Below are positions 15,359-62,539 of a stretch of 64,000 nucleotides of DNA, one piece after another; the first letter of the stretch is position 1; each line of letters begins with the position of its first letter. Origin of the DNA: Atriophallophorus winterbourni (taxonomy: Eukaryota > Platyhelminthes > Trematoda > Plagiorchiida > Microphallidae); NCBI GenBank assembly GCA_013407085.1, contig JACCGJ010004959.1, positions 1 through 64,000 on the forward strand, in the 5' to 3' direction. The notes beneath the pieces are model-generated. The model saw only the letters and a program-made list of their open reading frames with translations, was not told where the DNA came from and ran no database searches. A program made the position numbers and the translations under genes.

Positions 15359-15359
<1 letters not shown>

Positions 15360-15360
<1 letters not shown>

Positions 15361-17115: not shown

Positions 17116-17119
17116 TAAT

Positions 17120-18800: not shown

Positions 18801-18844
18801 CTATTGAATCTTATACTTAAATTGTTTACTGAGGGTAGACAATA

Positions 18845-38589: not shown

Positions 38590-40725
38590 GTATTATTAGT
38601 GTTTCGTGCCAATAAAAACTGTTTATTAGTATTGGGTGACTTCAATGCCAGAGTTGGTGAAGATCACGAGTCTTGGCATAGCTGTCCGGGAAGGTTCGGC
38701 GTCGGTAAAACCAATAAAATTAGACAACGCCTTTTAGAACTGTGTACACAGTTCAGTCTTTGTGTCAGTAACACATTCTTGCAAACAAATCACAACATAA
38801 TGTCACCTGGAAACATCCTTGCATGAAGCATTGGCATCAGACTGATTTTATTCTTGTTGTGCGCACTAAAATAGGTAGCGTTATACTCAAAATATCATAT
38901 CAAAGCACAGCATGAGACACTGAACATTAGCTGGTTTGCGCAAAACTGATGTTACCGCAGACGAGATTTCACCGCGCTAAATTGTATGCTAATCGAAGAA
39001 TAGACGTCACTCGCAAATTAACGTAACTGCGTGATTTGTAAAAGCCTTCACAGCCGTGTTTAACAAAGGACAGTACGGCACTTGAAAATGTTGAGCGGTT
39101 GCCAACCTGCCAAATCTTGATGAGCTTAATTGGGCAATTGACAGCTTAGCGAATGAGAAAGCCCCCGGTGATGACGGAATTCCATTTGAGCTCACCAAAT
39201 GCTGTAGAAGAGCATTATTACAGCCACTTCAACATTTGCTTCTCCACTGCTGGCAGGAGAAGTGTGTCCCACAAGAGATGCAATGCACGAAGTTCATTAC
39301 GCTATTTAAGAATAATTGTGATAGAGGCGAATGCAAGAATCACAGAGGAATGACCTTTCTGAATGTTGTATGCAAATTATTTGCTAAAGTCTAACAGATC
39401 TAGCTGCAAGTTTTAGATGATAGAGTTTTCTTCGAATCACAACGTGGCTTCCGCTGAGAAAGATCAACCGTTGACATGATCTCGTCCCTAAGACAACCTC
39501 AAGAAAAGTGTCGGAAACAGCATATGACGCTTCATGCAGATTTTATTGATTTAACGAAGACATTCGAATACGTCAGCAGGGAGCGTCTTTTCAAAATGCT
39601 GGTTTCGTTCCACTCAGGCATGAATTGGTCAGTCCATTTTAAAGATGAAGTTCAGAAGCGCTTGAAATTCACCGAGGCCTCAGCAAGTGTGTGTTCTTGC
39701 TTTAATGACGAGAATAAAAGTCATTTACCTACGCACGCGAAGTAAAGGCAAGCTTTTCAACCTGAACCGGTTGACAGCACAATCCATGGTCCGCGATGTG
39801 CTGATCCATGATCTGCTGTTTACTGAGGATGCAGCCATTACTTTTCACTCCAAAGAACACCTCCAGTCGCTAATGGACTGTTTTTAGTAGTCATGCAAAG
39901 ACTTTGGATTAACAATCAGCATTAGTAAGAGCAAAGTCCTTGATCAAGGGACTCTATCGACTCCAATCATCGCTTTTGGAAACTGTCAGCTTCAATCAGT
40001 ACCTCATTTCACATATCTTTGTTCAATCATTGCGGATAACCTCTCGCTAGACACGAATATTGATAAGCAGATTAACAGAGCAGTTGTCATTTTGTCCCGA
40101 TTGAACTCTCATGTTTGGGGTAACCGCATGTTGACTGTGAACACAAAGATGATGACATACATTGTGTGCATATTAAAAGCTTTAATGTACGGCAGTGAAA
40201 CCCGGACCACTCATGCAAGAGACAAACTAAAGTTGAATGCTTTCCATATACGAAGCATCATTCATACCTATAAAAATCGTTGATAGACAATTTGACTACT
40301 GCTGAAATGTTTTAAAAGCTGGTCTACAGAGCATGTTCACCATATTGCGATATCTCCGCCTGCGTTAGTTTGGTCAGGTCTACAGAATGGAAAATGGTCG
40401 AGATCGAGATATGAAAGATCTTGGCATTGACCAAACGAGTTGGAAAGAACTTGCCCACATTGGAGGCATTGTGTAAAGCGACGTTTCTAAGCTATGAAAC
40501 AGATAAAGCTTTCGGCAGTTGGACGCAGATCACGCCCCGGTGTGCAACAGATTCCGATCGACCGATTAATGTTTATCGCTACAAGCGCTGCGAGCTAGAT
40601 TAATCCTCTCGAATAGAACTGTTTACTTATTTCGGAAAGCTGTGGAACATGAAAAACATACGACTGTGATGTACATCTATGGTCGACATCGATCTATAGA
40701 GGCCAACATCAAAAACATTTCAAAC
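38590..40725 (+). mobile_element. RTE-like non-LTR retrotransposon, long but heavily decayed copy
   Basis: Starts inside the AP-endonuclease (LLVLGDFNARVGEDHESWHS, FGVGKTNKIRQRLLELCTQF; GDFNARVG is the catalytic GDFN motif). It continues through a deleted linker to the RT (LTKCCRRALLQPLQHLLLHC region, FKMLVSFHSGMNWSVHFKDE, RTRSKGKLFNLNRL). The FADD box reads FTED. The C-terminal region (YGSETRTTHARDKLKLNAFH) follows, and a zinc-finger end (YRYKRCELD) at ~40610 has lost its key cysteines. The end CTATGGTCGACATCGATC lies near 40690. Stops and frameshifts throughout. Confidence 0.85.
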
Positions 40726-43890: not shown

Positions 43891-44278
43891 GTGCTGAGTT
43901 GCAATCAGGAAGTTGACCATTGGGCATACCGCACTTACGGTACAAAGACGTTTTCAAAATAGATATGAAAACACTTTGCATTGACCTCGCGAGTTAGTAA
44001 AAACTGCCTGTTGTCCGCTCACATTTGAGGCATTGTGTAAAGTGTCGTATGCAAGCTGTGAACGAGCAGATAGATTTCTTAACTGCAGAAGGCAGGTCAC
44101 GCCACCGACGTGCAACTGAAGTTGATTGACTGAGTTCCGCCTATCTTTGCGAGCCCGGTGGAAGAAATTGTTCCTCCCGAATATAAATGTTTAGTCATTC
44201 AAAAAGCTGTGGAAGATGAAAATAATCATGCGATTGTGATGTACATCCATGGTCGACATCGACTGAAGGAGACCAATT
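43888..44278 (+). mobile_element. RTE-like 3' end
   Basis: Begins LQSGS-like (GTTGCAATCAGGAAGTTGAC), then YKDVFKIDMKTLCIDLAS-like, a disrupted AEGRSRHRRAT-like stretch, a finger with altered cysteines, and the CATCCATGGTCGACATCGAC end at 44247-44266. Immediately 3' of the terminal exon of the micro-exon gene, so it may have truncated that gene's 3' UTR. Confidence 0.7.
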
Positions 44279-44312: not shown

Positions 44313-44575
44313 TTAGAACACGATAGACATGAAAGCAGCCAAAACACAGATGGTTAGTAATTCAGCAAGTTGAAAAGAAATTTTGACGTGTTTCAGTATG
44401 TGATTCCATGTCAGATGCGAAATATTACTAAAACTCCGGTCTAAGCGATTCATTGCAAACTTCCTTTCAATACTTATGAAATCTTGTGTGGTCTCAAATA
44501 AATTCAAATACCTCCTCAAATGTGCTGAGTAGATTTGTGAATGAAACCTCATTGTTTTAAACGATTGATGATCAT
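44313..44575 (-). CDS. MEG-like terminal exon with C-terminal hydrophobic helix
   Basis: The acceptor gcatgtttattcag, only 58 bp after exon 21, enters in phase 1 and opens 87 codons: DHQSFKTMRFHSQIYSAHLR, RYLNLFETTQDFISIERKFA, MNRLDRSFSNISHLTWNHIL, then KHVKISFQLAELLTICVLAA and FMSIVF before TAA. The last ~18 residues form a hydrophobic segment compatible with a membrane anchor or GPI-like tail. No AATAAA was seen before the adjacent RTE insertion. Confidence 0.5.
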
Positions 44576-47500
44576 CTGAATAAACATGCACAAACGCAAG
44601 TCGAGTGTGAATATTAATTTCCAATAAACTCACCCTCTTTGACAGTATCGCGAACTATTATGAATAATTTATTTAAAAATAAAGTTTAAAAAAATCGGAT
44701 AAATTACAAATTAGACTAACTACCTAAAATCAATTGTTAAGTGCTGACAGATAATAATGCAGCGGGTTGAGAAGAGAGGCTGGAAATGATAGCTGGCAAA
44801 CGTCTGACCACTGATCACAAAATTCGGGTCCTCGGTACAGAAAATATCTACGTTGCACAGCTAATCGAGATTGCACCTGTTTCATCCCTGAGGTAAACCT
44901 GTTAAATGCTAAACCCTTAACACGAGACAACGCTGATAGGCTTATCACGCATAAGACAACGAACGAAACACATATCCATCTTATCTAAGCAAATCAAGCA
45001 ACCCTAATACGGTCCTGAAGCATGTCTGTCCCGGTTGTCACTTCGATTGGAATTGTCAATCGAGTTCGTGTCCACCGGTACGTTTCAAGCTCTCACCACT
45101 GAGCGCTCATTTGCCCAACCTTGAAGAATCGCCACCGACGTTGTTGCTCAAACCATTCTAAAAAATTCTTCCGAAACACGAATAATTATGGGTTCGCGAT
45201 TGATTTCGTCCATTTATTCGGCGCTTGTTGCTCTTGTGTTGAGCTGGAGAGTGGAGCTCTGCATATCATTAAAAAGCTTGTGACTAGCGCTAATCTCTAA
45301 TGCACTTCGCATTCCCACAATAATACTCCAAATGTAACGTATATTAGATGACTAAATTGTTGCAAAGAAACAAACCAAATGAGATACCAAATGTTCTAAT
45401 ATACGTTTCATTTTCACAATTTTATATTTACCGATGTAGCATAACAATATAATGCTCGGAAATAATTCACATTTTTGCGATATTGAAAAATGGATTGCAA
45501 TAAGTCGCGTTTCATAATAATACGCTAGTTAATCAACACATTTTTGACGTAATTTTAACGCACGTTTTGGCATTGCCGTTCCAGTCGTTTCTGAAATTTT
45601 AATGTAAAATTCAACAATAATTTTCTGAAATTATTTCCAATATTGAGAAGAACTCAACCAAAATTCTTCACTTGTTGTTTCAGAAAAGTTCAGCAATTTA
45701 TTTTCAATTGAATTATCTTCCCGAAATTGCACATGGATGTCTTGTTTGCAAGGTAATTTGTTTGTAAAACAATCCAGAATTGCACATATAAGTGATTGGA
45801 GTGCTTGCGAGTCGTTCTCGCTAATTGCTATCATATTGATTTTGAAAATAGGTGATGATCGTTTTTCCGAAATGTTTTCTGATTTATGGAAGCACACAAG
45901 AATCATAGCTTTTTTCGCATAACTTTAATGAGGGTATTCTGATTTTACACCACATACCCATTCAAATCATTGTCTTTACCACATCATAGCGGAATGCGAT
46001 TGCAATAATGTGAATTCTGCTATTTGCTCGCATGATACAACACTTATAATGGTACTCTATTTTTCTCAGTTATAGTGATAATTTGCATTGAGTAATTATA
46101 TGCTGAGATATCGTAGATTCGGCTTTATTGATTGTAGGCTTGATAATTATGCCAGATTACTAGACTCTGTGTTCCCAAGGCAAGTTGATTATTTCTTATC
46201 ATTCAACCGATTTCAGTTTAGAGATATGTGCAAAGTTGTTCAGTATATTTCATGTGAATTAAAGTAGGATACACAAACATTTTCTAATTTCGAAAGAAAT
46301 GCAAAGTATAGATTAGGCGGAATATTGTGTTGCTTAAAATTCACTCACTGCTATATTTTTCCTCTACTGCATTGGTGTACACTAAAATTGAAGAAAAATT
46401 GATAAATTACGTTTACATACTCATTATCATTTTGAACTATAACTCAAATAAACTAATTGAAAGGGCATGCATTAATATTGTTAAGTCAGGAAGGGTGTTC
46501 TTTAAAATTATAGTGATCTATTCATTCAAAATTAATGATTGACAAATTGAATTACACTGATTAGTTTGTTACGATTGGTTTAAACAAATATTATTATTTC
46601 AATTAATCTGTTGTTCACAAAAATGTGACTTGATGCTGTTCATAAAATGGCTAAAAGTTGCTGAAGTGGAATAATATGAAGATAATTTTTAGACTGGAAT
46701 CAATGCTATTAAGCAGACAACCAGATGCATTCCCGCAACTTTAAAAGATATCAGCTCGGCCTCATCTAAAATATTGTGTCCAAGCGTGGTTCCCTCATTA
46801 CAAGAAGTATATCGTTCGACCTGGAAGCGTACAGCTTTTCAAAATTCGCAGTCATTGATGTAAATCTTAATCTTCACAAAAGGAGTCCCTAGATATTTTC
46901 CCCCTTAATGGTAATCGTTTATGCGGTTACTTATTAAGATAAAGAATTGGTTAAGTGGCTGCTTATTAAACGATTCTTTTACCCGAGCTGGACATATGTT
47001 GTCATTCACTTGAAATTGTTAGAGACATGTCGGCTAGACACTATGAAACATTTTCAGAGCATTAGGGTGGTAAATTTATGGAACAGTCTCCCAGGAAACT
47101 GATATCCTGCAGTCACATCACGATCTTCAAGCAGGTTCTATTATGCAACTGAGGTGAGGTATTTCCTCAAAGCTCCCCTATTTGTAATCCAATGATCGGA
47201 AGATCCCCTTTTCGAGCGTTATTTAGTAAAGAAAGTGAATGCTAGCGTTCGTGTTTTATACACGCGATTGTCAATGGTTTCAAACGGACATGAGAAAAAA
47301 CATTTTGGCAGTGATGGGTGCGTCTATGCAGCTTTGTACACCAAAATAAATTCCATTTGCGTGATTAGCTCGTCAGCAACTTACTGTACTGTGCAAACTG
47401 AGCTGAACGGTCCTCTATTTATGTATTTATTCTCGTCTTAATTGCTGCAGAGATCTAATTCGATTCAGTTCATTATAGTAAAAAAATATTCATTTCCCAG

Positions 47501-48371
47501 TTTAGTTCAACTGCAATTTAGACAATAACAATACTCTAATTGGACATCAAACTACAGAACTTGGAAAATAATAAATTGATTTATAGATAAATATGCTCAT
47601 TGATATAGGTATAAATTGTCTTTTCAAGCCCAGTTCACACTAGAATAAAATGTTTCGGTGTCACAAACGGCATGTACTCAAACTAAAAACCTGATGTACT
47701 CAATGTTAAACATTTTGAAGTCACATCAGTATTTTAATGGATTTCACTGAATAGAAAAACATTCTTGCAAAAATGTTCTTTTTCACTTACGGTTCACGAT
47801 TTTTTTGCCCTCTGTTAAAAGGGAATAGTATTTTGTTTTGCCAAAGAAATAACCTCTTAAAGCTTTGTTACATCGATATCACTAAGTTGAATGGTAAAAA
47901 GCACATTTAACTTAATTTTATTCTATTGAATGACTTGAACAAATACAAGGCCTGTGCCACATTACAAATTTGCACAAACATCAGATTGATTGGTTTCCAT
48001 ATCACAAAATTGCAACCACAGGTACACACTACATTGGAGTCATCTTTTTTCTTTTGATGGGACATTGAGGCTCTGAATTTCTTCTCTGGAGGCAATAACA
48101 TTTTAGTTTAAAACAACAAACACTCAAATGAATGCGGTTGTCAAATGTCAAGTGACCAAATCGAGGAACGTAACCCGCTTCGGATTTATGACTTTGCCCT
48201 GACCTGCACATCATAACCAGTTTTTATCTGTTCAGTTCTCCTAAATGAGAACATTAGTAGTAAACAGAGTTAAGTCACTGGAGGTGATACAATGTTTGCT
48301 TTGAATTCACGGTTCAGCAAGATTGCAAAACTATCCTTTAAATAACTTTCAGGTAATTATTTGAGAAAATG

Positions 48372-48402
<31 letters not shown>

Positions 48403-51400
48403 ACTCACGCAAGGTCAGCTAATTATAAACATTTACAACTAAACTGGTCGATAAAACATTCCCAAGAACCAAGAATTCACTATATCCGTGAGTCACATTT
48501 CACTACGCATATTAAAACTTACATTTAAATTTGTAAAAATACATTTCGAATGTACTGCGTAAGTTTGCATTCTCTAATGAGGTGATTTTTATAGCAAAAA
48601 ACATGTAAGACCGTTAAACATTACCTTCTGCAAAATAGTCTGAATGAAAACATTGATATTTGCATCAGTATGTAAAAAACGGAGCAATATTCATCAACAT
48701 CGCCTAAACAACGATGACCATCTGATCTATTTGGTATTAGCTTACACTGTATCCGAAGGGAAGACCTGACACGGCCGACCATAACAGATGTTGCTGGCTC
48801 CTTCTGAACTGGTCAGGCAAACAAAGCGACTAAAATTAGCCAGTCTAGAGAACAGTTCATAAACGCATAATTGCGATCGGTCAAACGGTGGACCGTAGCC
48901 GCAGTCGTTAAGTCGTGGGACTACAATGGTGAATGTCGGGGGTTCGAATCCCACCCGAAGCGGAGGATATGCATTGCTGATGAGCTCAAATAACTGCGAA
49001 TCTCGAGTCGAATGCTTCCATTATGAATCGTCGTGATCAACTCTCTGAATGTTCCGATGGGCTTGGCACGGATGAGTAGTCACAAATATCAATAAACCAT
49101 TACGAGCATAATCGTTAGTATTTCATGGTCAGCATTACCTACTGAACTAAACATCTTTCAGACCAAGAAGGATCCACATTTTCGAATAAAATCTATAATG
49201 GGGTTTTTTTTGCCGCACTATGTATTTTTTTATATAAGTTTCTACAGACTAGCAAAACATGTGTAATTTGTTTTTAGCAGTTCGTAGACAAAGGACTACT
49301 CTTTTTTTTAGTAGCCAATTCTAGCAACGAACGGAATATATTCTATCATATCAAAAAATGGGAGCTACGAAAATTCCGATGATATAAATCACAAGAATAC
49401 GGGTTTTTCAAGAATTTGTTATGACAGCTCGACTAGCAGGATCAGGGGGAAATATCAGATAGTGTTGTTTGATTTGGAATGCGCTAATGTCGTTTAAAAT
49501 TGCTCAATGATGCGATGACTCGGAGGAAATGGACAAGCCGAAAATGACATGACGAATTTTGTCAAGATGACAACTGGTGCAAGCTGCAATTTGAGGTCTG
49601 TCAAATCGGATGTCTATAGGTGATTTTTTCATTCAGCTTAATCTACTAGCATGAAATGCCTTATGAACTTGTAGATATCCTGGGGGTTTGCTGACAATTA
49701 ATCGTTAGACACTTAATCGTCCACACTTAATCCATAGACACCCAATCACCAGACATTTGATCGCCATACATTTAACCCCTAAGTCACTCCATCCTCAGTC
49801 ACTCAATCTCCAGTATATCAGCATACTTCTTCTTCTGTTTGATATGAACCCCAGCACTTGCTTGAAGAACTGAGACCGTATGCTGTCGGCAATCCTTTCG
49901 CAAACCGTTAAGAAATGTCCACATGGTGGGATGTTGGCAAGAAAAGAGTGACTGTAATGCATTATTCCACGGCACAATCACCAGGCGTAAGTCATCGTCT
50001 GCCTCATAATCTGCTTTCATCACTAGTTCACTTATTATTCGTTGCAGGAAATGACATGTCGAGCAATTCAGCGGTACTCAACTACGGAAAGATTGATGTT
50101 CTTAAAATCAATTGCATATCTCTCCTGCTAAATAAATTCATTCAAACGTATTCTGCATTCTTCGAAATTATCAAACTGGGGATTAAGTGATTCAAAAGGA
50201 ATCAAAGTTGTAATGGTTTGAAAAGCATTTAGCTTAACAATAACCATAGGATGAAGTTATGAGGTATATACAATAAAAAAGAAGAACAGGAAAACTCATG
50301 TAGTGTAAATCGTATCAAAGTTTGGGTTGTTTCTCAAGTGTTTGTCCAAATTAGCTTTAAAAATATCCAGGTTGGCTGAGTGTGTAACAGTGACTGAAGA
50401 TTAAGTGACTTGTCATTAACTTGAGGGTCAAATGTCCGGGGAAAATGTCTGGTGCTTTAGGGTCTAGGGATTAAGTGACAGCGAGTAAGTGTCTGACGAT
50501 TAAGTGACCGTACACCATACTTAGGTGATAAACGAATTGAAATGAATTGTTATGAATGGTGTAAAATGGATCGACGCCAGATCGATTCTCCCGGTGGTGT
50601 TTGCTAACAAAAGTAGTGATGAGAATGACGTAATGGGTATTTATACTATAAGTAAAAGATGAGTAGATAAGAACGGAGTGACTGAGCGCTTATCGCTCAG
50701 AAGACACCGGTCACAATACATCTGACGAAGCTCACTTCTCAGAAGGTGAACTCTACAAAAAATCAGCTCTGATAGATGTACTGCAAACATTACTTTCTTT
50801 TCTACTAATTCCATATTGGCTTCGAATATGTTCAATACAATTATTCAATAAATATGGACAAGATTTTTCAGTTTTTTAATTAGCAATAATAAAACTAATG
50901 TTAATCCTTTTAACCAATCATGAAATATCGGTAAAATCATTTTCATTGAAAACATATCTTTATACTTGGTTCGGATATGACACTAGTAATGCAATTGTAC
51001 TGGTAGCTTGTATTGATACAATCGGCATTCTGGTGTGAAGAATTATTCGAAAAATGTTTTTAAGTTTAGTGCGGTAAAGATGGCTTTCAATTACATATCA
51101 AGAAAAATTAAACGTGAAAAATTTCAGTAAAATTTCAGTAGAATTCCAAATTACCGTTCGATTGCCCGGCTAAAAGGTGTAACATATTTGATTATATCGA
51201 GATATTAATTTAGAATAACGTCCATACACTTAAATGGAAACTTTCATCTAAATAAAGTGGTCAGTAATGAAAATGAAATTAGGATTATAAATTTTTATGG
51301 ATTCGGCTAAAGACGTAAATAATTTATCGAGTGTATCATTGTCACTGACATCCATTTACAGATCATGTCAGGTAGTATATAACGAAACGCACGCTTAACT

Positions 51401-54400
51401 AGCTGAAAGAGAGATATTTCTGTCAAGCACTGAATGGCTGATTGATCGTTGATCAACTCCGTCCACGGTTTTTCGTGTGTGAGAATAATGGAGTTAATTT
51501 CAATTAAATCATTAAATGTGGTTGAGTTGATGCTCATTTTTTCATTACTCCCTGACAATTTAATCGTACGTTAATGCAACACAGCACGTTATGTATTAAT
51601 TATATGAGAACACCGAGGACAGGCCTGAATTATCAAGCTCTATGATAGTCAATTAATATTTTCAAAAAGGATTAAAGATTTTATTAGTTGAACCTTAGCA
51701 ATTAGATCTTATAGTTCCACTCCCAAAATATATCTACGACAATTGGACTCCGGGCTCTATCGTCATCACACAATCTAGTGAAAAGGCATTTTTTGCTTGA
51801 TATCTCTACAATCTGACACCAACGACAGTTTCAAAACTTCAGTGTTTTCATAGAATTGTTTCACTTATTTACTCATTTTCTACGTATACGTCATTAATTC
51901 TAAAGTGAAAATCTATTTCAACGATAGACTTCTTTATCGGTAGCATTTTTACTGCTTCATAAAATCACTTTAATTTACCGATGAGATATTAAGGCACAAT
52001 ATAATTATTAATTAAAGTTCAAATCGAATAGAAATGTACGAAAAAACAATTTTATAAGCGTCCACATTTTTATTGATATCTAACATGCATCGACGATCGG
52101 ATTGGAACGGAAGTATAGGTTACCGCATCATTCATATATTACTGTATCGCTTATTTTAAAACAAGTGATTCATACCTATTCTCGCTTATATGTTAGTGGT
52201 CAATACGGAGTGAACAAAGATATTTCAGGTGCCATAAATTTACCACTGCTTGACATAGCGTAACTTGCTTTTCTTTTTTTATGAACGAAAGACTTACCCG
52301 ATGGACGTCGATGTTTCAAATTCATTGCTATAATTATTACAAATAGAAACGAATTAAAACTAAGGGGTAATATCTAAGCAGTGCTGATAAAATCATGCTG
52401 TGACAACAGGTACATACGTCGGAACTCAATAAATCTGTAAATTCACAAGAGGCTTCTATGACCTTCAAACTAATGTCAAGGGAAATCCACCTTGGTCATT
52501 GATAACCTATTCTTTAGAGGTTTTACCTGAAATTAGGCGGGTCCACATTCACTATATTGGTTGGAAATGGCATGCACAGTTCATAGAGAGTGTGATCAAC
52601 TATCTGTGTGCTCACATCATGCAATGACGTACAAGCATAGTATATAATAAAATTGAATTTATGGTTATCCAAAATGTGTATCAATATACCTACTCAGCAA
52701 CACTGAATATTTATTTCATCAGGTAAACATAATTTTTCTGTCATAAATATTTTGATATGTATTCAAATTGATAGAACATACTCAGGCGCCAACACCGAAA
52801 CCATAATTTTCCGGTCTGTTAATGCCGCTTATATTACATCTCCAGAATTCGATGCAAACTTATCCTTGCATATATAGCACAAACTACTAATTTCTAACCC
52901 ATGGATAACTTAATCCAACATCGAACATTTAGTTACACCCGACGTCATGTATCATATTGAAAATACCACATTCTGAGTGGAACTGTGACAGGTATTTTTA
53001 TTTGATGCGTGCGAGTATTGTTTGGAATTCCCTACCGGCCAATTTGGTAAACTCAGATCGTTTTTCTATATTGAAATCAAAGCTTGACCGCCATACACAG
53101 GATAACTTTGATGTTTATCTCACATATTAACGAGTTACTCCTGTAATGGAGACTGATCCATTTTAATAACTAGTGTATAAATTTACATATGTATACTTAT
53201 ATTTCAACCTTGTGGCTATTTTGAAGTTACATGCTTTTCCAAAAGTACTCCTTGAATATTAATACTCTAAAACAAGCAGGAGTAAAAGATTTTGACGAGT
53301 ATTCAATATAAATTTGAAGAGTTTTCAACCACTGTATAGATTGCAGTGTGACTACTCGGTGATTTAGCTAATATTTACCATCTAAATTCATGCCAGTCTG
53401 GTACAGGTGTTTAGTTCACGATATTTAGCTCTCTATTACCCACGCTGTTTATGCTGTTGTAATCACGTGGACCAGCTTATTATATTTATAATTGTATAAA
53501 TTACATTTATATTTTATTTTTTTTAACAAAATAGCCTCATTCGCATGTATTTCCATCACACATTCACCCCACGACCGGTTTCGTTCTGATAAACTCATCA
53601 AGTAGAGGATTACGGTCAAGATACGAATCACTTGAAACAGTGGAGAAGTGATGAAACATTTCACATTTGTATTTGAAAATGTTTATAACAGATAGCGGAA
53701 TAAATTTCACCATGAAAGCTACTGTTTCCTAAGGCTGCCTTGCTTTGTAAGCCATTATTGGATAAGTTTGGCACGCCCAGCCTGATCAATCAAGTAATGA
53801 AACAGAAATAGACGAGGCAAAACTCATGGCTTGTGCATACGGATTCAGATCATACAGTAACTACCAAAAATTGCCCATAGCATAAAAACGATCGTTGTTC
53901 GTGAAATAGAAATGTAAGCGAATAAGAATTTTTAATTTCAAGTAAGTTCAAGCGCAACCTCATAATGGAAAGCTAGACATTAACCACTAGAATGTAACGG
54001 TTCATTGTAGACACACCTTTTTCTGCAAGCAAACCAGCGCCATCGGTGATCGTACCTTCCAAACGAAATCAAAATTCAATACGAATAAAATCGATTAAAT
54101 GTCAACCTTATGGACGTAAAAATGATTCAAATACAGAATCACAGAGATACCAATCAAGCGCTCGAGGCGCTTATAAATGGCCAAGTGATTGTGTTACTCA
54201 GATCTAACGCATTTGGTTTCAGGTGGAGAATGTGAGCACTACAATACTTCGGTCATTTCTAGCATCCTGAACGCTTGAGAAAGAATCCCACTGTGATTCT
54301 GTATTTGAAAAACATGGTTCGTTATACAATGCCGATTGAACAGTAACTTTCGAATATAACTGCAATGCAGCGTATTTGACATAATCAGATGAAGACAATA

Positions 54401-57400
54401 AGCCCAGATTTAGTGAGACTTGACACAGTGGTAAAGTGATAAAACACCGAAAAATGGGATAGATGGGAGAGAGAACAAAGGTGGTCAAATCTCGAATAAA
54501 AATGTGAGTAAGTCATCAAAACTCGAAACGATTACAATAATAATTAGTCCAAAGAATGAGCACTCGGAGATGGAAATATGAGAATATGCTCAAGTGAAAG
54601 TAAGTTATTTGGTTCGTCTAGTTGAAAATTCAAACACACAATTGAAAACAGTGGTCGCGTAGATGCTTTTTGCCACAAAACATAATAGAAACAGTATATA
54701 TGCACGTATATTATACCAGCATAATCTGTTTTGACTAATAACTCACTATCTTTCGCTTCATTTATTGCTTTGAAAATCAAATGAAAAATATATATTCAAT
54801 GAAACCAAATGGTTATTTAGGCTTTATATAGAAACGGAGGATAAGTGCTGCTTCAACTGATTTTATAATTTATCCTGCCGTAATATTCGACATTACAATA
54901 ATTCAAGCATCGACGATTATTTTGGTAATAATATATTAATAAAAAATTTGGGTAAAACACTTCTATATGATACCAAGTTCAAACAGCACAAAACCTGACG
55001 TGGTGTGTAAGAGATAAAAATGCATGCAAGCCCATCGGTTTAACTCCATGCACGTTTTTGCGCTTAGTGTGATTGAAAATGTTGATCGTGCCAGCCTTAT
55101 CTAATAATGGTTTTCCAGTCCAAAAACTGTTTACCATTATTCCACTGAAGAGAACAGTCAACAAGAAAGCTGTCGTGATCTGTGGGCATGATGGAAATTC
55201 ATGCAACTGAAACGTTTATGTTCAATGTCAATATAAGGTTGTTCTTCTCAAACCTTTCCATCCATCACTAGCAAGAAAAGTTTTAAAAACGTTTACATAT
55301 GCATTACACGTTTGATTACTGGCCCCCATTCCCATCACACATTACAAATAGTTCACTTTTATTAGTTTCAGAAGGCAGCTAGCTTTAATATTTATAGAAG
55401 TGGATAATTGCTACAATAATTCAAATTCAGTGAGATTATAGATCAAACCAAGAGGATGTTTGCAGTATATGAATGAATAAGTGAATTTTTATTGGCATAA
55501 CTCTCACTGATTATCTTTTACCCAGATCCTGCGCGTTATTAACGAAGCTGTTGTGGAGTTTTTTTTTAAATTTCATCTTCATTGAAATATTAATATTTTT
55601 ATTAATATTCTCATAGATTTTTGGTTACTAAACCGAAATTATGTTCAATGTAGGTTTCTTATCGTTAGAATACGTCAAAAATCGAACATTACGTATATTA
55701 TATTATAGTATACAGAATATAATGAATATTTGAATCATTAAAATTATTGAATGAAGCAGGTTCTACCTCAACAACAAATTCTTATTGTCTTCGGTACATT
55801 CAAATCATTGACTTTTATTTTTTCCCTATATTCAAATCGTCCGGGTGAGGCATGACGACGAACTTCCATCGGACTCACTGTGCACTCATCTACGTGTTAT
55901 TTGTTTTGTATTCTTCGTCTCATTTGCCTCTGCAATCCACTTTTACTGTACCTTCACACGTTCACTTTGTTGTTGCAATATAAATACAAACCATGTCCAC
56001 AGCCAAATGCACACACTTGGCACATTGGACTTTGGACATCTTATCAACGTTCCATTCCGGCCTTGTTCTGAATTCCGGCCTGTTGGGTTGAGAACAACGC
56101 ATCGATTGATGTGAACACAACCACTGTCGCCGCTACATCATCCGCTTCATCAGAACAAATAGCCGAACATACATTTCATCGAAACAATAATACATCCCTA
56201 GTTTCAAATGCTTACCTTTATAAAAATCGACCACTTCTGCAAAAAGGACTCAAGTAAAATTGCTTGTTTTCATGGGTTGTTCATGAAATCATTGTAGAGT
56301 ATCACTCACCCGTCGCATATTCTTGAACCAAAGAAGAATTTTCATTATTATATAACAATAGCGAAGTATATATTATTTATCTATTTTATAGATTATTTAA
56401 TTAAGCAAGTTAGTGTTGCTGGAATTGTGTTTTATTTATGATTATTCTTTTCATTATTTTTTGTTGTTTGCTAAATTTCTTTTTCCTTTCCAAAAGACTA
56501 AATAATTCAAATAATTCAAATAATTCAATCTGTCACCTTACAATAAACTCTAATAAACTAATAATTGAAATCATTTTTCAATGTGTACAATAATAAATGA
56601 CGAAATAAATATTTTTACTGCTGATGCGTGTTTCACTCGTTCTTTTAATATGCGTTTGGTTTTATAACAATGAGATACGCCTAAATCTTCGTGGAAATTC
56701 AGAAAGGAATGAATGTTTACTTTACATTTTTAACACTTCGGTGGGATCAGGTGATCCATTTTTCTTTTCATTCAAAGTGAAATAAACCAAAAGCACATGT
56801 TTTTCGATCTTTGTCCGATTCGACAGAAAAGGTATAATATTTAAGTTACATTGCTGTTTTATCTCTGACAATTCCTCACTATTAATAATTGGATTTTATT
56901 ATATCAAAATAGTTATTTGTTTCGGCAAAATCTCAAAGAATTTCACTGGATACATTCATTGATTCAACTGCAGCATCAAAAGACAAATTAATCTACCCAG
57001 TCACGCTTGTACCACATGCAAATATATCCATTTCAATCATCAAATGAAACTAAGGTCCTAGGTCTGAGCTACCTCTACTTACATCATTATATTAAGTGAG
57101 TGATTAGGAATTTCAACAAACGAGTCAAACACATCATTTAAAGAATTGTTCTGTATATATCAGTAATTATTTTTTACTAATCCCTTGATTAATTATCCGT
57201 ACGTAAAAACAGTTGTTCCTGTCATCATCAAACAAACAGAACAAACTTACTGATTTCTTCCTCTGTGAAAGAATAAATGTTTTGCGGTAATTAGTATTTA
57301 TTTTGAAAATAAATAAATAACAATTTTACGTTCGTTCAACTTAAAACTGAACATTTGAACATAGGATTATAATGACGCTCACCTTTACTAGCACGAACAT

Positions 57401-57452
57401 CCGTCGACAAAATTAACAATGCAACGCAGCTAAACAAAATATTCATGCTCAT
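44313..57452 (-). CDS. Micro-exon gene (MEG-like): secreted or membrane-anchored protein from ~22 candidate exons
   Basis: Model, 5' to 3' on the minus strand: signal-peptide exon 57383-57452; micro-exons 57251-57262, 56947-56967, 56310-56321, 56216-56236, 54747-54767, 54017-54022, 52527-52551, 52418-52434, 52298-52327, 52176-52184; exon 51360-51551; micro-exons 51155-51169, 48625-48639, 48523-48554, 48409-48418, 47791-47811; exon 45672-45827; micro-exons 45097-45119, 44877-44898, 44634-44654; terminal exon 44313-44575. Summed coding length 1014 nt (337 residues plus stop), no in-frame stops. Sixteen junctions are phase 1; three pairs (25+17, 32+10, 23+22 nt) shift and then restore phase. Schistosome MEGs have this layout: a signal-peptide exon, many short symmetric exons, and secretion or surface display of variant peptides by exon skipping. 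Seen: splice signals and frame. Inferred: that they form one transcript. Individual weak exons (6 and 9 nt) may be wrong. Confidence 0.5.
44634..44654 (-). CDS. MEG-like exon 21 (21 nt)
   Basis: TTCGCGATACTGTCAAAGAG plus G; long pyrimidine-rich acceptor (tttttttaaactttattttt ... cataatag) and perfect donor G|GTGAGT. Phase 1 to 1; encodes (x)RDTVKE. Strong. Confidence 0.55.
44877..45119 (-). CDS. MEG-like exons 19 and 20 (23 + 22 nt, compensating phases)
   Basis: Exon 19 (45097-45119), acceptor gcgattcttcaag, donor GTG|GTGAGA, phase 1 to 0, encodes WANERSV. Exon 20 (44877-44898), acceptor agcatttaacag, donor ACAG|GTGCAA, phase 0 to 1, encodes VYLRDET. Sum 45 nt. A rival 23-nt candidate for exon 19 exists near 45430-45455. 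Confidence 0.35.
45672..45827 (-). CDS. MEG-like exon 18 (156 nt)
   Basis: Acceptor tttcaaaatcaatatgatag, phase 1, encodes ISENDSQALQSLICAILDCF, TNKLPCKQDIHVQFREDNSI and ENKLLNFSETT, donor CAA|GTGAAG in phase 1. Three cysteines and one N-x-S sequon (NFS). The frame stays open past the donor to a stop at 45631, so it could be a terminal exon in some transcripts. Confidence 0.4.
46720..47165 (+). mobile_element. CR1-like remnant in an intron of the MEG-like gene
   Basis: Faint CR1 C-terminal similarity in mixed frames: YCVQAWFPHYKKYIV and later ARHYETFSEH, GGKFMEQSPRKLISC, SHITIFKQVLLCN (compare WNSLPxxVISAxxIxxFKxxL). Confidence 0.45.
47791..47811 (-). CDS. MEG-like exon 17 (21 nt)
   Basis: AGGGCAAAAAAATCGTGAAC plus C between acceptor actattcccttttaacag and perfect donor GTAAGT. 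Phase 1 to 1; encodes GKKIVN. One of the strongest micro-exons. Confidence 0.55.
48409..48554 (-). CDS. MEG-like exons 15 and 16 (32 + 10 nt, compensating phases)
   Basis: Exon 15 (48523-48554), acceptor caaacttacgcag, donor AAAT|GTAAGT, phase 1 to 0, encodes HSKCIFTNLN. Exon 16 (48409-48418), acceptor taaatgtttataattag, donor GTGAGT, phase 0 to 1, encodes LTL. 104-bp intron between them; together 42 nt. The (TA)n microsatellite at 48372-48400 lies just past exon 16's donor. Confidence 0.45.
48625..48639 (-). CDS. MEG-like exon 14 (15 nt)
   Basis: ACTATTTTGCAGAAG between acceptor atcaatgttttcattcag and donor GTAATG; phase 1 to 1, encodes YFAE. An alternative acceptor inside it (ttgcag) would leave a 3-nt exon, also phase-neutral. 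Confidence 0.45.
48880..49105 (+). mobile_element. tRNA-derived SINE
   Basis: The head (about 48890-48963) has an A-box-like GTAGCCGCAGTCGTTAAG, GTGGGACTACAATGG, and a perfect B box GGTTCGAATCC at 48941-48951, in the order of a class II (Leu/Ser-type) tRNA. The cloverleaf is incomplete and a tRNA-unrelated body follows (GAGCTCAAATAACTGCGAATC onward), so this is a pol III SINE head rather than a working tRNA gene. The end of the body is not defined. Confidence 0.6.
49690..50515 (-). mobile_element. Mutator-like (MULE-type) DN​A transposon remnant with sub-repeated inverted termini
   Basis: The left end (49693-49815) and the reverse complement of the right end (50396-50512) align over ~120 bp, and both are built from degenerate 16-20-bp words such as CACTTAATCGTCAGACA. 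Between them, on the minus strand, a short frame reads PWNNALQSLFSCQHPTMWTF then LNGLRKDCRQHTVSVLQA. This fits the C-terminal part of MULE transposases (EGWHNxL...HPxxWxFLxxL), where W-N/H-N precedes HP-x-x-W. Most of the transposase is gone. A CR1 3' end (50215-50395) is inserted just inside the right terminus. I infer the MULE assignment from motif similarity by eye. Confidence 0.6.
50215..50395 (-). mobile_element. CR1-like 3' end inside the MULE remnant
   Basis: Minus strand: VTHSANLDIFKANLDKHLRN then NPNFDTIYTT and stop, followed by the CATCCTATGGTTATTGTTAAGC 3' UTR word also present in the 4-6.5 kb copies. Confidence 0.75.
51155..51169 (-). CDS. MEG-like exon 13 (15 nt)
   Basis: CCGGGCAATCGAACG between acceptor atatgttacaccttttag and donor GTAATT. 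Phase 1 to 1; encodes (S)GQSN. Confidence 0.45.
51360..51551 (-). CDS. MEG-like exon 12 (192 nt)
   Basis: Acceptor gtacgattaaattgtcag, phase 1, encodes SNEKMSINSTTFNDLIEINS, IILTHEKPWTELINDQSAIQ, CLTEISLFQLVKRAFRYILP and DMI. Contains one N-x-S/T sequon (NST). Donor T|GTAAAT is acceptable, exit phase 1; length is a multiple of three. Could form amphipathic helices; no known domain. Confidence 0.45.
52176..52184 (-). CDS. MEG-like exon 11 (9 nt), weak
   Basis: CGAGAATAG with donor GTATGA; the acceptor (accactaacatataag) lacks a pyrimidine tract but has a CTAAC branch-point-like word. Phase 1 to 1. Confidence 0.25.
   Translation of the reverse strand, partial: RE
52298..52327 (-). CDS. MEG-like exon 10 (30 nt)
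   Basis: Acceptor tttctatttgtaataattatag and perfect donor CGG|GTAAGT. Phase 1 to 1; encodes MNLKHRRPS with a basic run. 90-bp intron from exon 9. Confidence 0.5.
52418..52551 (-). CDS. MEG-like exons 8 and 9 (25 + 17 nt, compensating phases)
   Basis: Exon 8 (52527-52551) runs from acceptor catttccaaccaatatag to donor TTTCAG|GTAAAA, phase 1 to 2, encoding NVDPPNF. Exon 9 (52418-52434) runs from acceptor tcttgtgaatttacag to donor GTATGT, phase 2 to 1, encoding FIEFR. Separated by a 92-bp intron. Together 42 nt, so the pair restores phase 1 and would have to be included or skipped together. Confidence 0.45.
52990..53270 (+). mobile_element. CR1-like 3' end
   Basis: Encodes LMRASIVWNSLPANLVNSDR, FSILKSKLDRHTQDNFDVYL and TY, then stop at 53130. 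The 3' UTR includes CCTTGTGGCTATTTTGAAGT. Lies in an intron of the MEG-like gene. Confidence 0.75.
53525..53830 (-). repeat. Hammerhead repeat, family A, nearly intact ribozyme
   Basis: Minus strand 53567-53607: stem I pairs CTCTAC (after a C) with GTGGGG (six pairs including two G-U), core TTGATGA (only C3 changed), stem II GTT with AAC, GAAA, stem III ACC with GGT, cleavage triplet GTC. It is followed by the ATGCATG-like flank. Among the family A copies here this has the best overall fold, but the C3 change should weaken or kill activity. Confidence 0.65.
54017..54022 (-). CDS. MEG-like exon 7 (6 nt), weak
   Basis: AAAAAG between acceptor ggtttgcttgcag and donor GTGTGT, phase 1 to 1. So short that chance occurrence is likely; the reading frame holds with or without it. 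Confidence 0.2.
54225..54450. repeat. Hammerhead repeat family B fragments in inverted arrangement
   Basis: Plus strand 54225-54370 carries the family B body (GGAGAATGTGAGCACTACAA, TACTTCGGTCAT). The adjacent 54375-54450, read on the minus strand, carries the upstream flank TTACCACTGTGTCAAGTCTC. The ribozyme core lies at the junction and is broken. Confidence 0.5.
54747..54767 (-). CDS. MEG-like exon 6 (21 nt)
   Basis: CAATAAATGAAGCGAAAGAT plus A between acceptor tttttcatttgattttcaaag and donor GTGAGT. Phase 1 to 1; encodes (x)INEAKD. Confidence 0.5.
54965..55230 (+). repeat. Hammerhead repeat fragments, family A
   Basis: Two decayed blocks: AAACAGCACAAAACCTGACG at 54980 and a later GTCAACAAGAAAGCTGTCGT at 55160, both followed by GxxATGCATGCAA-like flanks. 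About 180 bp apart. Confidence 0.5.
55840..56160. other. GC-richer block of unknown origin
   Basis: The open plus-strand frame 55845-56114 (LRVICFVFFVSFASAIHFYC) and CATTCCGGCCTTGTTCTGAA-type sequence differ in base composition from the neighbourhood, suggesting an old insertion. No family recognised. Confidence 0.25.
56216..56236 (-). CDS. MEG-like exon 5 (21 nt)
   Basis: AAGTGGTCGATTTTTATAAA plus G between acceptor cttgagtcctttttgcag and donor AAAG|GTAAGC. Phase 1 to 1; encodes (E)VVDFYK. 73-bp intron from exon 4. One of the strongest micro-exons. Confidence 0.55.
56310..56321 (-). CDS. MEG-like exon 4 (12 nt)
   Basis: AATATGCGACGG between acceptor attcttctttggttcaag and donor GTGAGT. Phase 1 to 1; codons for YAT plus split codons. 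Confidence 0.5.
56947..56967 (-). CDS. MEG-like exon 3 (21 nt)
   Basis: TTGAATCAATGAATGTATCC plus A, acceptor tttgtcttttgatgctgcag, donor GTGAAA (weaker). Phase 1 to 1; codons for ESMNVS. Confidence 0.4.
57251..57262 (-). CDS. MEG-like exon 2 (12 nt)
   Basis: AGGAAGAAATCA between acceptor catttattctttcacag and donor GTAAGT, both near-consensus. Phase 1 on both sides; adds Glu-Glu-Glu-Ile. Intron 1 is only 120 bp. Confidence 0.55.
57383..57452 (-). CDS. MEG-like exon 1: signal peptide
   Basis: ATG at 57452 starts MSMNILFSCVALLILSTDVR then ASK, a typical short signal peptide (Asn/Ser n-region, FSCVALLIL core, A-x-S/A cleavage region), ending at the strong donor AAAG|GTGAGC in phase 1. An in-frame upstream extension exists but the second ATG-rich start is the sensible one for secretion. 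Confidence 0.6.
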
Positions 57453-58334
57453 TTTCACCCGGTTTTCAGAAATTTGATTGCAGTCACCGTGAGTAAGCAG
57501 CTTTAAACAAACTTCATCCACCAATCTGGTTTAGGTTTTTCTCACCAATCCGAAGCGTTTTTATGAAAAAAGACTTCAACTTGACATTAGGTTCAATTTT
57601 ACGAACTTTTTATAACAGACACCTTGAAATTTGCATTTTCCTCATGCTTCCCCTGTTTCACCGCTTTTGGAAAAATTCAACCTGATGACAGAAAAGTCAG
57701 GGACGCGTTACGGTACATGGATATCAAAAACACACATTAGTGTTTTCTAAGGGTCAGTAACCGCTGGCACGGAATCTCTTGTGCTTATGGGATTTACCAT
57801 TACGAATCTCTGAAAGAATCCCACCTATCAATTGTTTTCAAGTAATATTTTGATGAATATGTTGACGACAACCTCCTATTTACAAGCTGTGGTGTGTTCG
57901 TGAAGTGTGTGAGTGCCCTCGAATGTCTACATGTATTCACTTGTGATTCAGTTATTTGAACAACGTGTTAGGTCTGTGGACCCTCTATTATAGTTGCTTC
58001 GTCATCATATTTGTTGAAAGGATATTCGTAAGGAGACTATTTTGGATCCAATTTGGGGAATATGAATTACACAATATTTTGATGATGCTACCATGTATTC
58101 CTTGCGAAATTTATCAATGCAACTTCGTGTATTTAAGTATCTCAGGGCTTTGATTTCGTTTTTCAATATGATATATGATATATGATATTAAAACTGCTCA
58201 AAATCAGAGCGCAAATTAAATCATATTAACAACCTCACTTCATCAATCTCCGTTAAAATTCGAAGAGGCAATATATTTATTGCCATTGGTGCAATGCTCA
58301 ATGAGTGAATCTGATCTAGATAAATACAAATGAA

Positions 58335-58468
58335 GGGTATTTATAGACAAATATTCTTGTTCGCAAACGTTTCCATCGCACACATCATAGGATCGGTTCC
58401 ATTCTGTTGGCACTCATCACGTAGGGTTAGCACGAACATGATTCACATGCATTTAAACAGTGATAACC
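58335..58468 (-). repeat. Hammerhead repeat fragment, family A
   Basis: Minus strand 58384-58430: CCCTACGTGATGAGTGCCAA, CAGAATGGAACCGATCCTAT. The core is GTGATGA for CTGATGA and GGAAC for GAAAC; stem II is mostly lost. It abuts the 5' end of the RTE element. Confidence 0.55.
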
Positions 58469-58469
58469 A

Positions 58470-61400
58470 TGGTTGGCACTGCCCGGGCGGTTTTGGGGAT
58501 AAGCTCCCAATTATAAACATGCTCTAATGGTGCGCGTCTCATATGGCTTCTGACAACCAAGTCCAGCTCCTAGCCTGCACTCGTGATCCAGTGTAATCTG
58601 GCAGTAGATGGGGCATAAGCGGCTGACTGGCGCCTCAATACCAGCATGCTTCAGGCATGTGAAGCTCGTGTGTGCACAAAGGCGGCCCACCTAGGGCAAA
58701 GAAAACCATTACCTCGAGCCTTCAATGCCTCGTGGATACATCTACTCATTAAAAGGTCTTCAGGAATCAACCTCGTGATAATCGTTGTCCAAACGTATGA
58801 GCCTAGATGTTCACTTGGTTCCAGTGGTGCTGTGGGTGGAAGCACTTGTGGCATGATCGAAAACTATTTCGACTTATTGAACTGCCCGAGCGTACATTTC
58901 AGGGCACTAATAGAGAGCAAATTCCATTTCGCTCCTATAAATAATAACATGGCAAGCAGTAAATACCGGTGGAAAGCTATGGATTGACTGGCGTAGAGGT
59001 CAGTGCCTGTGGTTGCTTCCGATGTTGGGAGAGATTTTCACGTCTCATAGGACGGCTACCGCCAGCCTCAGGCTGGGTAGCCCCAGTCATGAAGGTCTCG
59101 TCCCGCCATGGTTTTCTATCATTATAGGGTTCATAGGGGATATGAATAAACCGATAAGCACAATATATTTGTTCACACCAGCAAAACGACAAAAAAACAA
59201 AGGTCAGTTCTGAAACTGATAACCTGGAAAGCCCGGTCCGTGGTCCAAGGATTTCATGACGACGTCTCGAATATTTGAGGCGTAAGAAAATCAGCTATGA
59301 TTAACAATGAACTGAACAGGCTGAAGGTCGACGCGTTTGCCCTGCAAGAGACGTGATTACTAGACCCTAGCATGCCAATAGAAAGAGATTACACATCATT
59401 TGGAAGGAAAGGTGATATGTTGAGCCTCCACTGCATTATAGTTATGTTTGCCTCGCGAGGCAGCCTAATAAAATCAGGAGAAATAAGCAGCAGCTGGAGC
59501 GAACGGATTTGGACTCAAAATCTGAAAGGCATTACGGGTACCATTACGTTGGTCAACGTTTATGCGACAAATCATTCTACGGCGCCTGCTGAAAACGACG
59601 TTTTTTTCATAACCACACAAAAGTCCACAAAAACGTGACAAGGTGAAGTTGTATTTGGTGATTTCAATGCCAGAGTTGCTAAGGAGTACGAGTCTTAGCA
59701 AAACTGTTTTGGAAGGTACAGATTAGGTTAAACCAATGGAAATGGACAACCCCTTGTAGAACTGCGCGCACAGTTCAGTATTTGCGTCAGAAACACATTT
59801 TTGCAGACAAACCACAGCATAAAGTCTCTTGGAAACATCATTGCTCAAAGCAAGGCACCAGCTTGATCATATTGTTCTTAGGCGCACTAATATATGTAGC
59901 GTACTCCTCACCAGATCGTATCAAATAGTAGACTGCGACACTGACCATTCGCTGGTTTGTAGAAAACTATAGTATCCCCTGTCGAGATTATGCCGCCCCA
60001 ATTTGTCTGCTACACCAATGATAGACGTCACTCGCATGTTCGAACCTGATCTAGCTGCGCGCTTTGAAAATGCCTTCACAGTCGAGTTCAACAGAATATC
60101 CCCACTCTAATCGGCTTAAGAAAACTGGGAATAGCTTAAAATCTGCATATGCCACTTTTGGTTTAAAGAATGCTCGAACGAGCGAATGGTTTGAAGCAAA
60201 AGCTTCTGAGATGACTGCGGTGTTGGATAAAGAAACGTTAAGCATTCTTAAATTTCAAAGGTATGCTAACAGATGAAAACAAAAGAGTTCTAAGAGCAGC
60301 TAGAAATAAAGTCTAACAGACTGCAAGACGATGTGGAGATGACTATTGGACTGCAATTAGAATCAGAATCGAAAAGCTACGTATCCTTGAAATTTTCATG
60401 GTACGTATGATGGTATCAAGTGAGCCATTGATCCAAACAAACTTAAAAAGAATCCTATTAAGTCTGAATCTGTGAACCTGATTGTCGACAACACTCAGCA
60501 AATGGAAAGATGGGTAGAGCACTTATCATCTTTTTACTCTAAGGACAGTACGGTTCAACCTCATGTACTTGAAAACGTTAAGCGTTGCAAACCATTGAAC
60601 ATCTAGATACTTCCCCTAATGGTGATGAGCTTAATAGGGCAATCGACCGCTCAGCGAATGGGAAGGCCCCTGGTGACGACGGAATTCCACCTGAGCTCAT
60701 CAAAATATCGAGAATAGCATTATTACAACCTCTTCACCATTTACTTCTCCGGTGCTCTCAGGACGAGTGTGTCCCACAAGAGATGTGAGACACCAAGATC
60801 ATCACGCTATTTAAGAATAAGGGTGATAGAGGCGACTGCAACAATTACAGAAGAATATCCCTTCTAAATGGTGCAGGCAAATTGTTTGCTTCAAACTTAC
60901 AGATCCCACTGAAAGTTTGAGCTGATAGAATTTACTCTAAATCTCAATTTAGCTTCCGCAGGGGAAGATCAATCATTGACATGATCTTCTCCCCGTGTCA
61001 ACTACGAGAAAAGTGTCGGGAACAGCGCATGTCATTAATTTTATTGCTTTTATTGATTCAGCATACTCATTTGAATAAGTTACCAGAGAGTATCTCTTCA
61101 AAATGCTTGATCTGATAGGCAGCACACTAAGAATGCTGTAACTCGCTAATTCGTTCTTTTCAGGAAATAATTTCTCAGTCCATTTTAAGGGTTCTAGTTC
61201 AGAAGCCATGAAAATTCACCGAAGCGTCAAACAACATTGTGCTCATGCTAACAAACTGTTCGGTATTTTCTTTGTTCTGCTTCTGAAGCACGCTTTTAGT
61301 ACAAGAACACAGAACATTTACCTACACACGCGAATTGATGGCAAGCTTTTCAACCTGAACCGGTTAAGAGCACGAAATATGCTAATCTCTTACCTGCTGT

Positions 61401-62310: not shown

Positions 62311-62402
62311 AGCACGTTTATACCAATGTTTCTATTCGAAATACCAAACTTTCGAACCACATATGCTAAAACCTATATAAATGGGGATAAACCCATGTGC
62401 AC

Positions 62403-62404
62403 AT

Positions 62405-62462
<58 letters not shown>
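62403..62462. repeat. TA microsatellite
   Basis: A long (TA)n tract following the RTE element; the nearby AACCATAAATCTTGAATCTTG (about 62513-62535) resembles a CR1 3' tail. Confidence 0.9.
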
Positions 62463-62464
<2 letters not shown>

Positions 62465-62539
62465 TTGTACCAATAGTTCGACTGTATGTTATTGTAGAGT
62501 ATATAGCTTTTTGAACCATAAATCTTGAATCTTGAATAA

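What the first reader, a model, noticed from the sequence alone, without database searches (positions are those of the whole stretch)
44313..57452. A candidate micro-exon gene with about 22 exons, most of them 6-32 nt, encoding a secreted or anchored modular protein
On the minus strand a signal-peptide exon with a GTGAGC donor is followed by a chain of short open exons bounded by consensus-like acceptors and donors. Several have GTAAGT, GTGAGT or GTAAGC donors (57251, 56310, 56216, 54747, 52298, 48523, 48409, 47791, 44634). Nine or more are multiples of three, in phase 1, with no stop across any junction, and the last micro-exon feeds a terminal exon that starts in phase 1 and ends in a hydrophobic helix. 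Schistosome micro-exon genes have this layout and produce variable secreted peptides at the host interface. I could not recognise the protein, so this may be an undescribed member. Selection by eye for frame inflates the apparent fit; the strong-donor exons are the ones to trust.
Basis: partly seen in the sequence, partly recalled or inferred. Interest (0 to 1): 0.92.

Follow-up and report, generated by a model that had tools for sequence, protein, structure and literature searches.

The report
Likely flatworm-type micro-exon gene
A stretch of animal DNA carries what is very probably a gene built from about ten tiny, swappable exons between a secretion signal and a membrane-seeking tail, like the variable secreted proteins of schistosomes; it looks like a new member of that known class, with fewer exons than first claimed and not yet confirmed by RNA.

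Summary
Scored without regard to frame, the minus strand of 57382-44576 gives 14 non-repeat micro-exon-like acceptor-donor pairs at score 13 or more. Ten are multiples of three and nine of these are open in phase 1. Shuffles average 4.8, 2.4 and 1.9, and none of 2000 reaches any of the three; the plus strand gives 2, 0 and 0. The chain starts with a signal-peptide exon, 57452-57383. It ends in an 86-codon exon with a hydrophobic C-terminus, 44575-44313, matched in none of 300 shuffles. The predicted model meets a published structural definition of micro-exon genes, and none of its 66 possible exon junctions makes a stop, so exons can be skipped freely. No relative was found, there is no RNA evidence, and the organism is not established. 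Best reading: a new, probably membrane-anchored, member of the known micro-exon gene class. Weaker signs of further such genes lie on the same strand.

The parts
57383..57452 (-). first coding exon, 70 nt: signal-peptide-type N terminus (23 codons plus one base, phase 1 out), donor AAAG|GTGAGC
   Evidence: highest donor score (10.8) of the signal-peptide-type exons listed on both strands (5 rows minus, 3 rows plus); 2 of 60 shuffles of the whole minus strand hold one with a donor >=10.7
57251..57262 (-). micro-exon, 12 nt, acceptor ttctttcacag, donor GTAAGT
   Evidence: score 14.7 frame-blind; also found by the plain consensus rule
56310..56321 (-). micro-exon, 12 nt, donor GTGAGT; acceptor has A at -3 (weaker)
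   Evidence: score 15.7 (a4.3 d11.3)
56216..56236 (-). micro-exon, 21 nt, strong at both ends (GTAAGC)
   Evidence: score 17.5, the highest in the region; also found by the plain rule
54747..54767 (-). provisional micro-exon, 21 nt, donor GTGAGT, weak acceptor
   Evidence: a3.1 d6.7, sum 9.8, below the thresholds used; open in phase 1 only
54017..54022 (-). micro-exon, 6 nt
   Evidence: score 16.2
52298..52327 (-). micro-exon, 30 nt, donor GTAAGT
   Evidence: score 15.7; closed in phase 0, open in phases 1 and 2
48625..48639 (-). micro-exon, 15 nt
   Evidence: score 14.2
47791..47811 (-). micro-exon, 21 nt, donor GTAAGT
   Evidence: score 13.9; closed in phase 0; also found by the plain rule
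46349..46381 (-). micro-exon, 33 nt, donor GTGAGT
   Evidence: score 13.1; open in phase 1 only; also found by the plain rule
44634..44654 (-). micro-exon, 21 nt, donor GTGAGT, weak acceptor
   Evidence: score 14.2 (a3.6 d10.7)
44313..44575 (-). terminal coding exon, 263 nt including stop: phase 1 in, 86 whole codons, C-terminal hydrophobic helix ending at the last residue
   Evidence: acceptor 7.2; best 19-residue hydropathy 2.08; 16 of 300 shuffles hold a phase-1 terminal frame of >=86 codons after an acceptor >=7, 0 of 300 with a hydrophobic end as well

Best explanation
A micro-exon gene on the minus strand, 57452 to 44313: one signal-peptide exon, about nine (8 to 10) cassette micro-exons of 6 to 33 nt, each a multiple of three in phase 1, and one terminal exon with a hydrophobic C-terminal helix. 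How it most likely works: the pre-mRNA is spliced with variable inclusion of the micro-exons; since each is 3n, sits in phase 1 and never ends in T, every subset gives an open frame, so one gene can yield a family of small secretory-pathway proteins (up to 174 aa) with a constant leader and constant tail and a variable short middle. The tail, hydrophobic up to the last residue, would hold the product in a membrane (transmembrane or GPI-type signal) or make it stick to membranes. Shown here by sequence statistics: the exon chain, its phase and the freedom from stops. Inferred: splicing, exon skipping, secretion, anchoring, role at a host interface.
For: Frame-blind excess of 3n, phase-1-open micro-exons on the minus strand only, kept with a weight-free rule. 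Signal-peptide exon ends in phase 1. Phase 1 is the only phase in which all ten micro-exons of the model are open, and random placements of exons of these lengths are all open in phase 1 in 27 of 1000. Terminal exon matched in 0 of 300 shuffles. 0 of 66 ordered junctions make a stop. Introns of 58 to 3658 nt. Layout as described for schistosome micro-exon genes: two long flanking exons, signal peptide in the 5' one, central micro-exons under 36 nt, 26 of 33 symmetric in one set (PMC4671649, passages); some are anchored by a transmembrane helix (MEG-14, 29, 32.1, 32.2; same call).
Against: No transcript or relative was seen; the terminal exon has no homologue in the protein collection. The splice weights are recalled, not trained on this genome. 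Five of the 14 frame-blind pairs at score 13 do not fit the chain (48976, 48240, 44898, 50752 are not 3n; 52526 has a stop in phase 1), one of them (48240-48204, 37 nt) with a score of 14.9. The weight-free rule is less decisive (4 and 5 of 1000) and finds only four of the chain's micro-exons. Two predicted introns (58 and 73 nt) are shorter than the 100 nt given as the lower end for S. mansoni in PMC10526429. Absence of T at the exon ends is partly what a donor consensus gives anyway. The conserved motif reported after the signal peptide of S. mansoni MEGs is absent. A repeat begins 36 nt after the stop, so no 3' UTR or poly(A) signal supports the terminal exon. A similar though weaker excess lies elsewhere on the same strand.
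Confidence: 0.78

Rival explanations
1. A real minus-strand gene with some of these micro-exons, but with other ends: the chain runs past 44.3 kb (for example into 42541-42521) and the 44575-44313 frame is not the terminal exon, or the chain belongs to two genes.
For: 42541-42521 is a 21-nt phase-1 pair of score 16.2 outside repeats; a signal-peptide-type exon lies at 42747-42666; no 3' UTR is visible because a repeat begins at 44277.
Against: The 44575 exon is by far the best phase-1 terminal frame of the region and follows a strong donor by 58 nt; 44276-25000 shows no excess of micro-exons overall (2 against 1.50).
Confidence: 0.12
2. Chance: AT-rich intergenic or intronic DNA in which eye and scoring pick splice-like pairs.
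For: No transcript, no homologue; pairs of score 8 to 11 are common in shuffles.
Against: 0 of 2000, 0 of 600 and at most 25 of 1000 shuffles reach the observed counts in three designs (the smaller single values are 4 and 5 of 1000); opposite strand 2/0/0.
Confidence: 0.07
3. A decayed or pseudogenised micro-exon gene: the layout is inherited but no longer expressed, with transposons filling its introns and its 3' flank.
For: Repeats lie within several introns and abut the stop at 36 nt.
Against: No stop in any exon of the model in the common phase and intact GT and AG at all 22 exon borders used; introns of such genes are long and transposons are reported near them (PMC10526429).
Confidence: 0.1

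Closest known systems
Schistosoma membrane-anchored micro-exon genes (MEG-14, MEG-29, MEG-32.1, MEG-32.2)
   Same: Signal peptide in the 5' flanking exon, run of short symmetric exons, membrane anchor (PMC4671649, passages)
   Different: No sequence comparison was possible: none of their sequences was at hand; the predicted hydrophobic helix here reaches the last residue; O-glycosylation was not examined
Schistosoma MEG-8/MEG-9 and MEG-15, with a hydrophobic C-terminal region
   Same: Hydrophobic C terminus, in MEG-8/9 coded by the terminal exon (PMC5825161 and PMC4671649, passages)
   Different: Their terminal exon is phase 2 at its 5' end (PMC5825161); here it is phase 1
Tapeworm micro-exon genes (Hymenolepis microstoma 52, Echinococcus multilocularis 35 in the count of PMC7653826)
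   Same: Structural class defined by runs of 3n exons under 70 nt (PMC7653826 section 9 and passages)
   Different: The H. microstoma cluster's shared leader motif given there does not resemble the leader here by eye; the exon layouts were not compared
VAL-6, a VAL gene with a micro-exon stretch
   Same: Part of the gene is made of very small symmetric exons (PMC4350168, passage)
   Different: The only exons here large enough to hold part of a domain are the first and last; the terminal exon has no Pfam match

Membership tests
Micro-exon gene (definition of PMC7653826) | at least seven exons | tested here: met
   Predicted model has 12 exons, 11 without the provisional 54767-54747; model not confirmed by RNA
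[quoted passage not shown]
   10 of 12 (9 of 11) exons of the predicted model, 6-33 nt
[quoted passage not shown]
   All 10 (9) lie in one run in the predicted model
Schistosome-type MEG (PMC4671649) | two longer flanking exons; signal peptide mostly or wholly in the 5' one | tested here: met
   70-nt first coding exon with a signal-peptide-type N terminus (judged by hydropathy, no SignalP); 263-nt terminal exon
Schistosome-type MEG (PMC4671649) | central micro-exons under 36 nt, mostly symmetric | tested here: met
   Frame-blind selection at score 13: 10 of 14 are 3n, all up to 37 nt
S. mansoni MEG consensus (PMC10526429) | hydrophobic-aromatic motif FL(phi)(phi)F-X6-W soon after the signal peptide | tested here: not met
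   No W in the first exon or in the 10 micro-exons, and split codons start with G, A or C, so none can be TGG. Reported for S. mansoni proteins, not a definition of the class; so not filed under an S. mansoni family
S. mansoni MEG red clade (PMC10526429) | Cys-based motifs (CGGL.., C..H..C, CLY..D) | tested here: not met
   No match within any exon and no Cys in whole codons of the micro-exons
Any MEG | transcripts with variable exon inclusion | not testable with these tools
   No RNA data at hand
Any MEG | flatworm origin | tested here: inconclusive

The most novel reading that the evidence does not exclude
The window holds part of a tandem cluster of micro-exon genes on one strand, of a family without a recognised relative: beside this gene, a second signal-peptide exon (42747-42666) with a 21-nt phase-1 micro-exon (42541-42521), and phase-1 micro-exons at 9697, 7985 and 7241 that belong to one or two further genes.
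Probability: 0.22. Interest if true: 0.55.

Novelty: new member of a known kind. Interest (0 to 1): 0.45.

Why it matters
Micro-exon genes are missed by ordinary gene finders, and PMC7653826 calls their identification across flatworm lineages a priority (section 9). A frame-blind splice-pair count with a shuffle and opposite-strand control, as used here, detects such a gene from DNA alone and also says how many of its exons to believe. If confirmed, the gene offers a membrane-anchored product with a variable middle, and a layout in which exon skipping cannot break the frame.

Tried and rejected
Rejected: the full chain of about 22 exons; exons ending at 48523 and 48409. Candidate pairs at 53065-53036 and 53585-53568 were dropped because they lie in repeats; several of the 3n pairs at 14-16 kb likewise lie in repeats. 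Exon duplication: the neighbourhoods of 14 micro-exons (10 of the model, 4 from elsewhere on the strand) show no similarity except the two (56321, 56236) whose windows overlap. Similarity between the 5' ends of this gene and the second candidate at 42.7 kb: none of note. Led nowhere: Rfam at gathering scores, tRNA scan, Pfam for the terminal exon, the PDB by sequence (best E 0.34), protein search for the terminal exon and for the 154-codon frame at 23417-23881, plasmid records for the retroelement. The protein search of the retroelement served as a control: the collection holds eukaryotes, but no flatworm is named among the few named rows of the 120 listed, so the miss is weak evidence. The source paper for the gene class, PMC2909574, is not held.
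Full report
What was checked. The finding describes a minus-strand chain from 57452 to 44313. I read both halves and scored acceptor-donor pairs 3 to 39 nt apart with recalled, generic splice-site weights, blind to reading frame.

Chance. In 57382-44576 (no masking) 12 separate pairs score 13.5 or more; 10 of 12 are multiples of three and 9 of 12 are 3n and open in phase 1. Block-wise dinucleotide shuffles average 3.56, 1.27 and 0.88 (max 10, 6, 4) and none of 1000 reaches any of the three. With repeats masked (self-similar DNA and translated self-matches), score 13 gives 14, 10 and 9 against 4.83, 2.37 and 1.90, 0 of 2000; score 14 gives 8, 7 and 7 against 2.96, 1.69 and 1.45, with 4, 0 and 0 of 2000. 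In one search the last 207 bases stayed unshuffled, so every shuffle kept one real exon; the bias is against the finding. Lengths at score 13 fall 10, 3, 1 into remainders 0, 1, 2, where shuffles give 1.48, 1.27, 1.22. The opposite strand gives 2, 0, 0. A weight-free consensus rule gives 7, 5, 4 against 2.97, 1.01, 0.70, with 25, 4 and 5 of 1000 shuffles as high; it finds four of the chain's micro-exons.

How many exons. Counting 3n phase-1-open pairs at falling thresholds, the excess over full shuffles is 6.5 at 14, 7.9 at 13, 7.8 at 12, 9.3 at 11, 10.0 at 10, 9.0 at 9 and 9.8 at 8 (at 9 and 8, 2 and 4 of 600 shuffles reach the count). It levels off near nine. The nine that score 13 or more are 57262-57251, 56321-56310, 56236-56216, 54022-54017, 52327-52298, 48639-48625, 47811-47791, 46381-46349 and 44654-44634; about one of these is expected by chance. 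54767-54747 (score 9.8) is provisional. The rest of a 22-exon chain cannot be told from chance, and the exons ending at 48523 and 48409 fail. Pairs that do not fit the chain exist too: 48976-48955, 48240-48204, 44898-44877 and 50752-50736 are not 3n, and 52526-52491 has a stop in phase 1.

Ends. The first exon is a signal-peptide-type exon of 70 nt ending in phase 1; under the criteria the scan lists 5 rows on the minus strand (two share this donor) and 3 on the plus strand, and this one has the highest donor score, 10.8, though not the highest hydropathy; 2 of 60 shuffles of the whole strand hold a donor as good. The terminal exon 44575-44313 has an acceptor of 7.2, 86 whole codons and the most hydrophobic end of the 29 minus-strand phase-1 terminal frames of 50 codons or more; 16 of 300 shuffles hold one as long with such an acceptor, none of 300 with a hydrophobic end too. 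One plus-strand frame of 50 codons comes near in hydrophobicity (2.65 against 2.73). A repeat found in several copies ends at 44276-44277, 36 nt beyond the stop, so nothing can be said of the 3' UTR.

Logic of the layout. In the 12-exon model phase 1 is the only phase in which all ten micro-exons are open; exons of these lengths placed at random in shuffles are all open in phase 1 in 27 of 1000. Exon ends are G (7), A (3) and C (1), never T; none of the 66 ordered pairs of exons makes a stop at the joint. Since stop codons begin with T, a phase-1 exon that does not end in T can be joined to any following exon. Part of this follows from the donor consensus alone. The inference is that skipping is tolerated in every combination and that variable inclusion gives a constant leader, a constant tail and a variable middle of up to 64 residues; the longest product would have 174 residues. 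Splicing itself was not observed.

Comparison. PMC7653826 (section 9 and passages) defines micro-exon genes by at least seven exons, at least half of them 3n and under 70 nt, and a run of at least four such exons; the predicted model meets all three. PMC4671649 (passages) adds long flanking exons, a signal peptide in the 5' one, micro-exons under 36 nt of which 26 of 33 were symmetric in one set, and names four membrane-anchored members. PMC10526429 (outline, section 5 part 1, figure and table text) reports a hydrophobic-aromatic motif after the leader in all S. mansoni MEGs and Cys-based motifs in one clade; neither is present here, and two predicted introns (58 and 73 nt) are below its 100-nt lower figure. 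PMC4413821 (passages) says that some copies share no conserved element at all. So the gene is filed as a member of the structural class, not of any S. mansoni family.

Relatives and organism. The terminal exon found no homologue, no Pfam match and only chance matches in the PDB. The retroelement control found 611 proteins; of the 120 listed, the few with names are turtle, snails and a fish, so the collection holds animals but shows no flatworm. Ten requests to the window's own assembly and four to the structure predictor met a busy machine. GC is 37.5%. That the organism is a blood fluke or any flatworm is plausible and unproven.

Surroundings. Elsewhere on the minus strand, unmasked counts are also raised (6373-19179: 11, 8, 7 at 13.5), in part because of repeats. 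With repeats masked, 25000-6000 still gives 5 against 1.02 at score 13 (1 of 200) and 57453-64000 gives 4 against 0.94 at score 12 (5 of 200), while 44276-25000 gives 2 against 1.50 (84 of 200). Two single pairs are as strong as the best here: 42541-42521 (16.2), just below a signal-peptide-type exon at 42747-42666, and 9697-9677 (16.5). This would fit a cluster of such genes, and it also means that the excess is not wholly confined to the reported region.

Verdict. A real micro-exon gene of known kind, with about nine micro-exons, probably anchored; confidence 0.78.

Noticed in passing
42747-42521 minus strand: Signal-peptide-type exon (82 nt, phase 1 out) followed after 124 nt by a 21-nt phase-1 pair of score 16.2; the acceptor at 42541 also opens an 81-codon frame with a hydrophobic end. 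Possible start of a second micro-exon gene.
   Followed up: partly
25000-6000 minus strand (9697-9677, 7985-7959, 7241-7233, 21061-21029, 23830-23810): Non-repeat phase-1 3n pairs, 5 at score 13 against 1.02 in shuffles, 1 of 200 as high.
   Followed up: partly
63696-63670 and 63043-63017 minus strand: Two 27-nt phase-1 pairs upstream of the gene; 57453-64000 holds 4 at score 12 against 0.94, 5 of 200 as high.
   Followed up: partly
23417-23830 minus strand: Open frame of about 135 codons outside repeats behind a good acceptor; the full 154-codon frame has a weak KH-type Pfam match below cut-off (E 0.009) and no homologue found.
   Followed up: partly
49695-50506: Inverted copies of about 120 nt at 74% identity with inner short repeats in the longest intron of the model; may be a foldback-type element.
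   Followed up: no
34530-35859, 39110-40283, 60615-61935 and 14470-14956: Copies of one reverse-transcriptase element at about 65-86% identity, about 60% identical to proteins named from turtle and snails.
   Followed up: partly
44204-44277: A repeat family found in several copies in the window shares a common end at 44276-44277, 36 nt past the stop of the gene.
   Followed up: no
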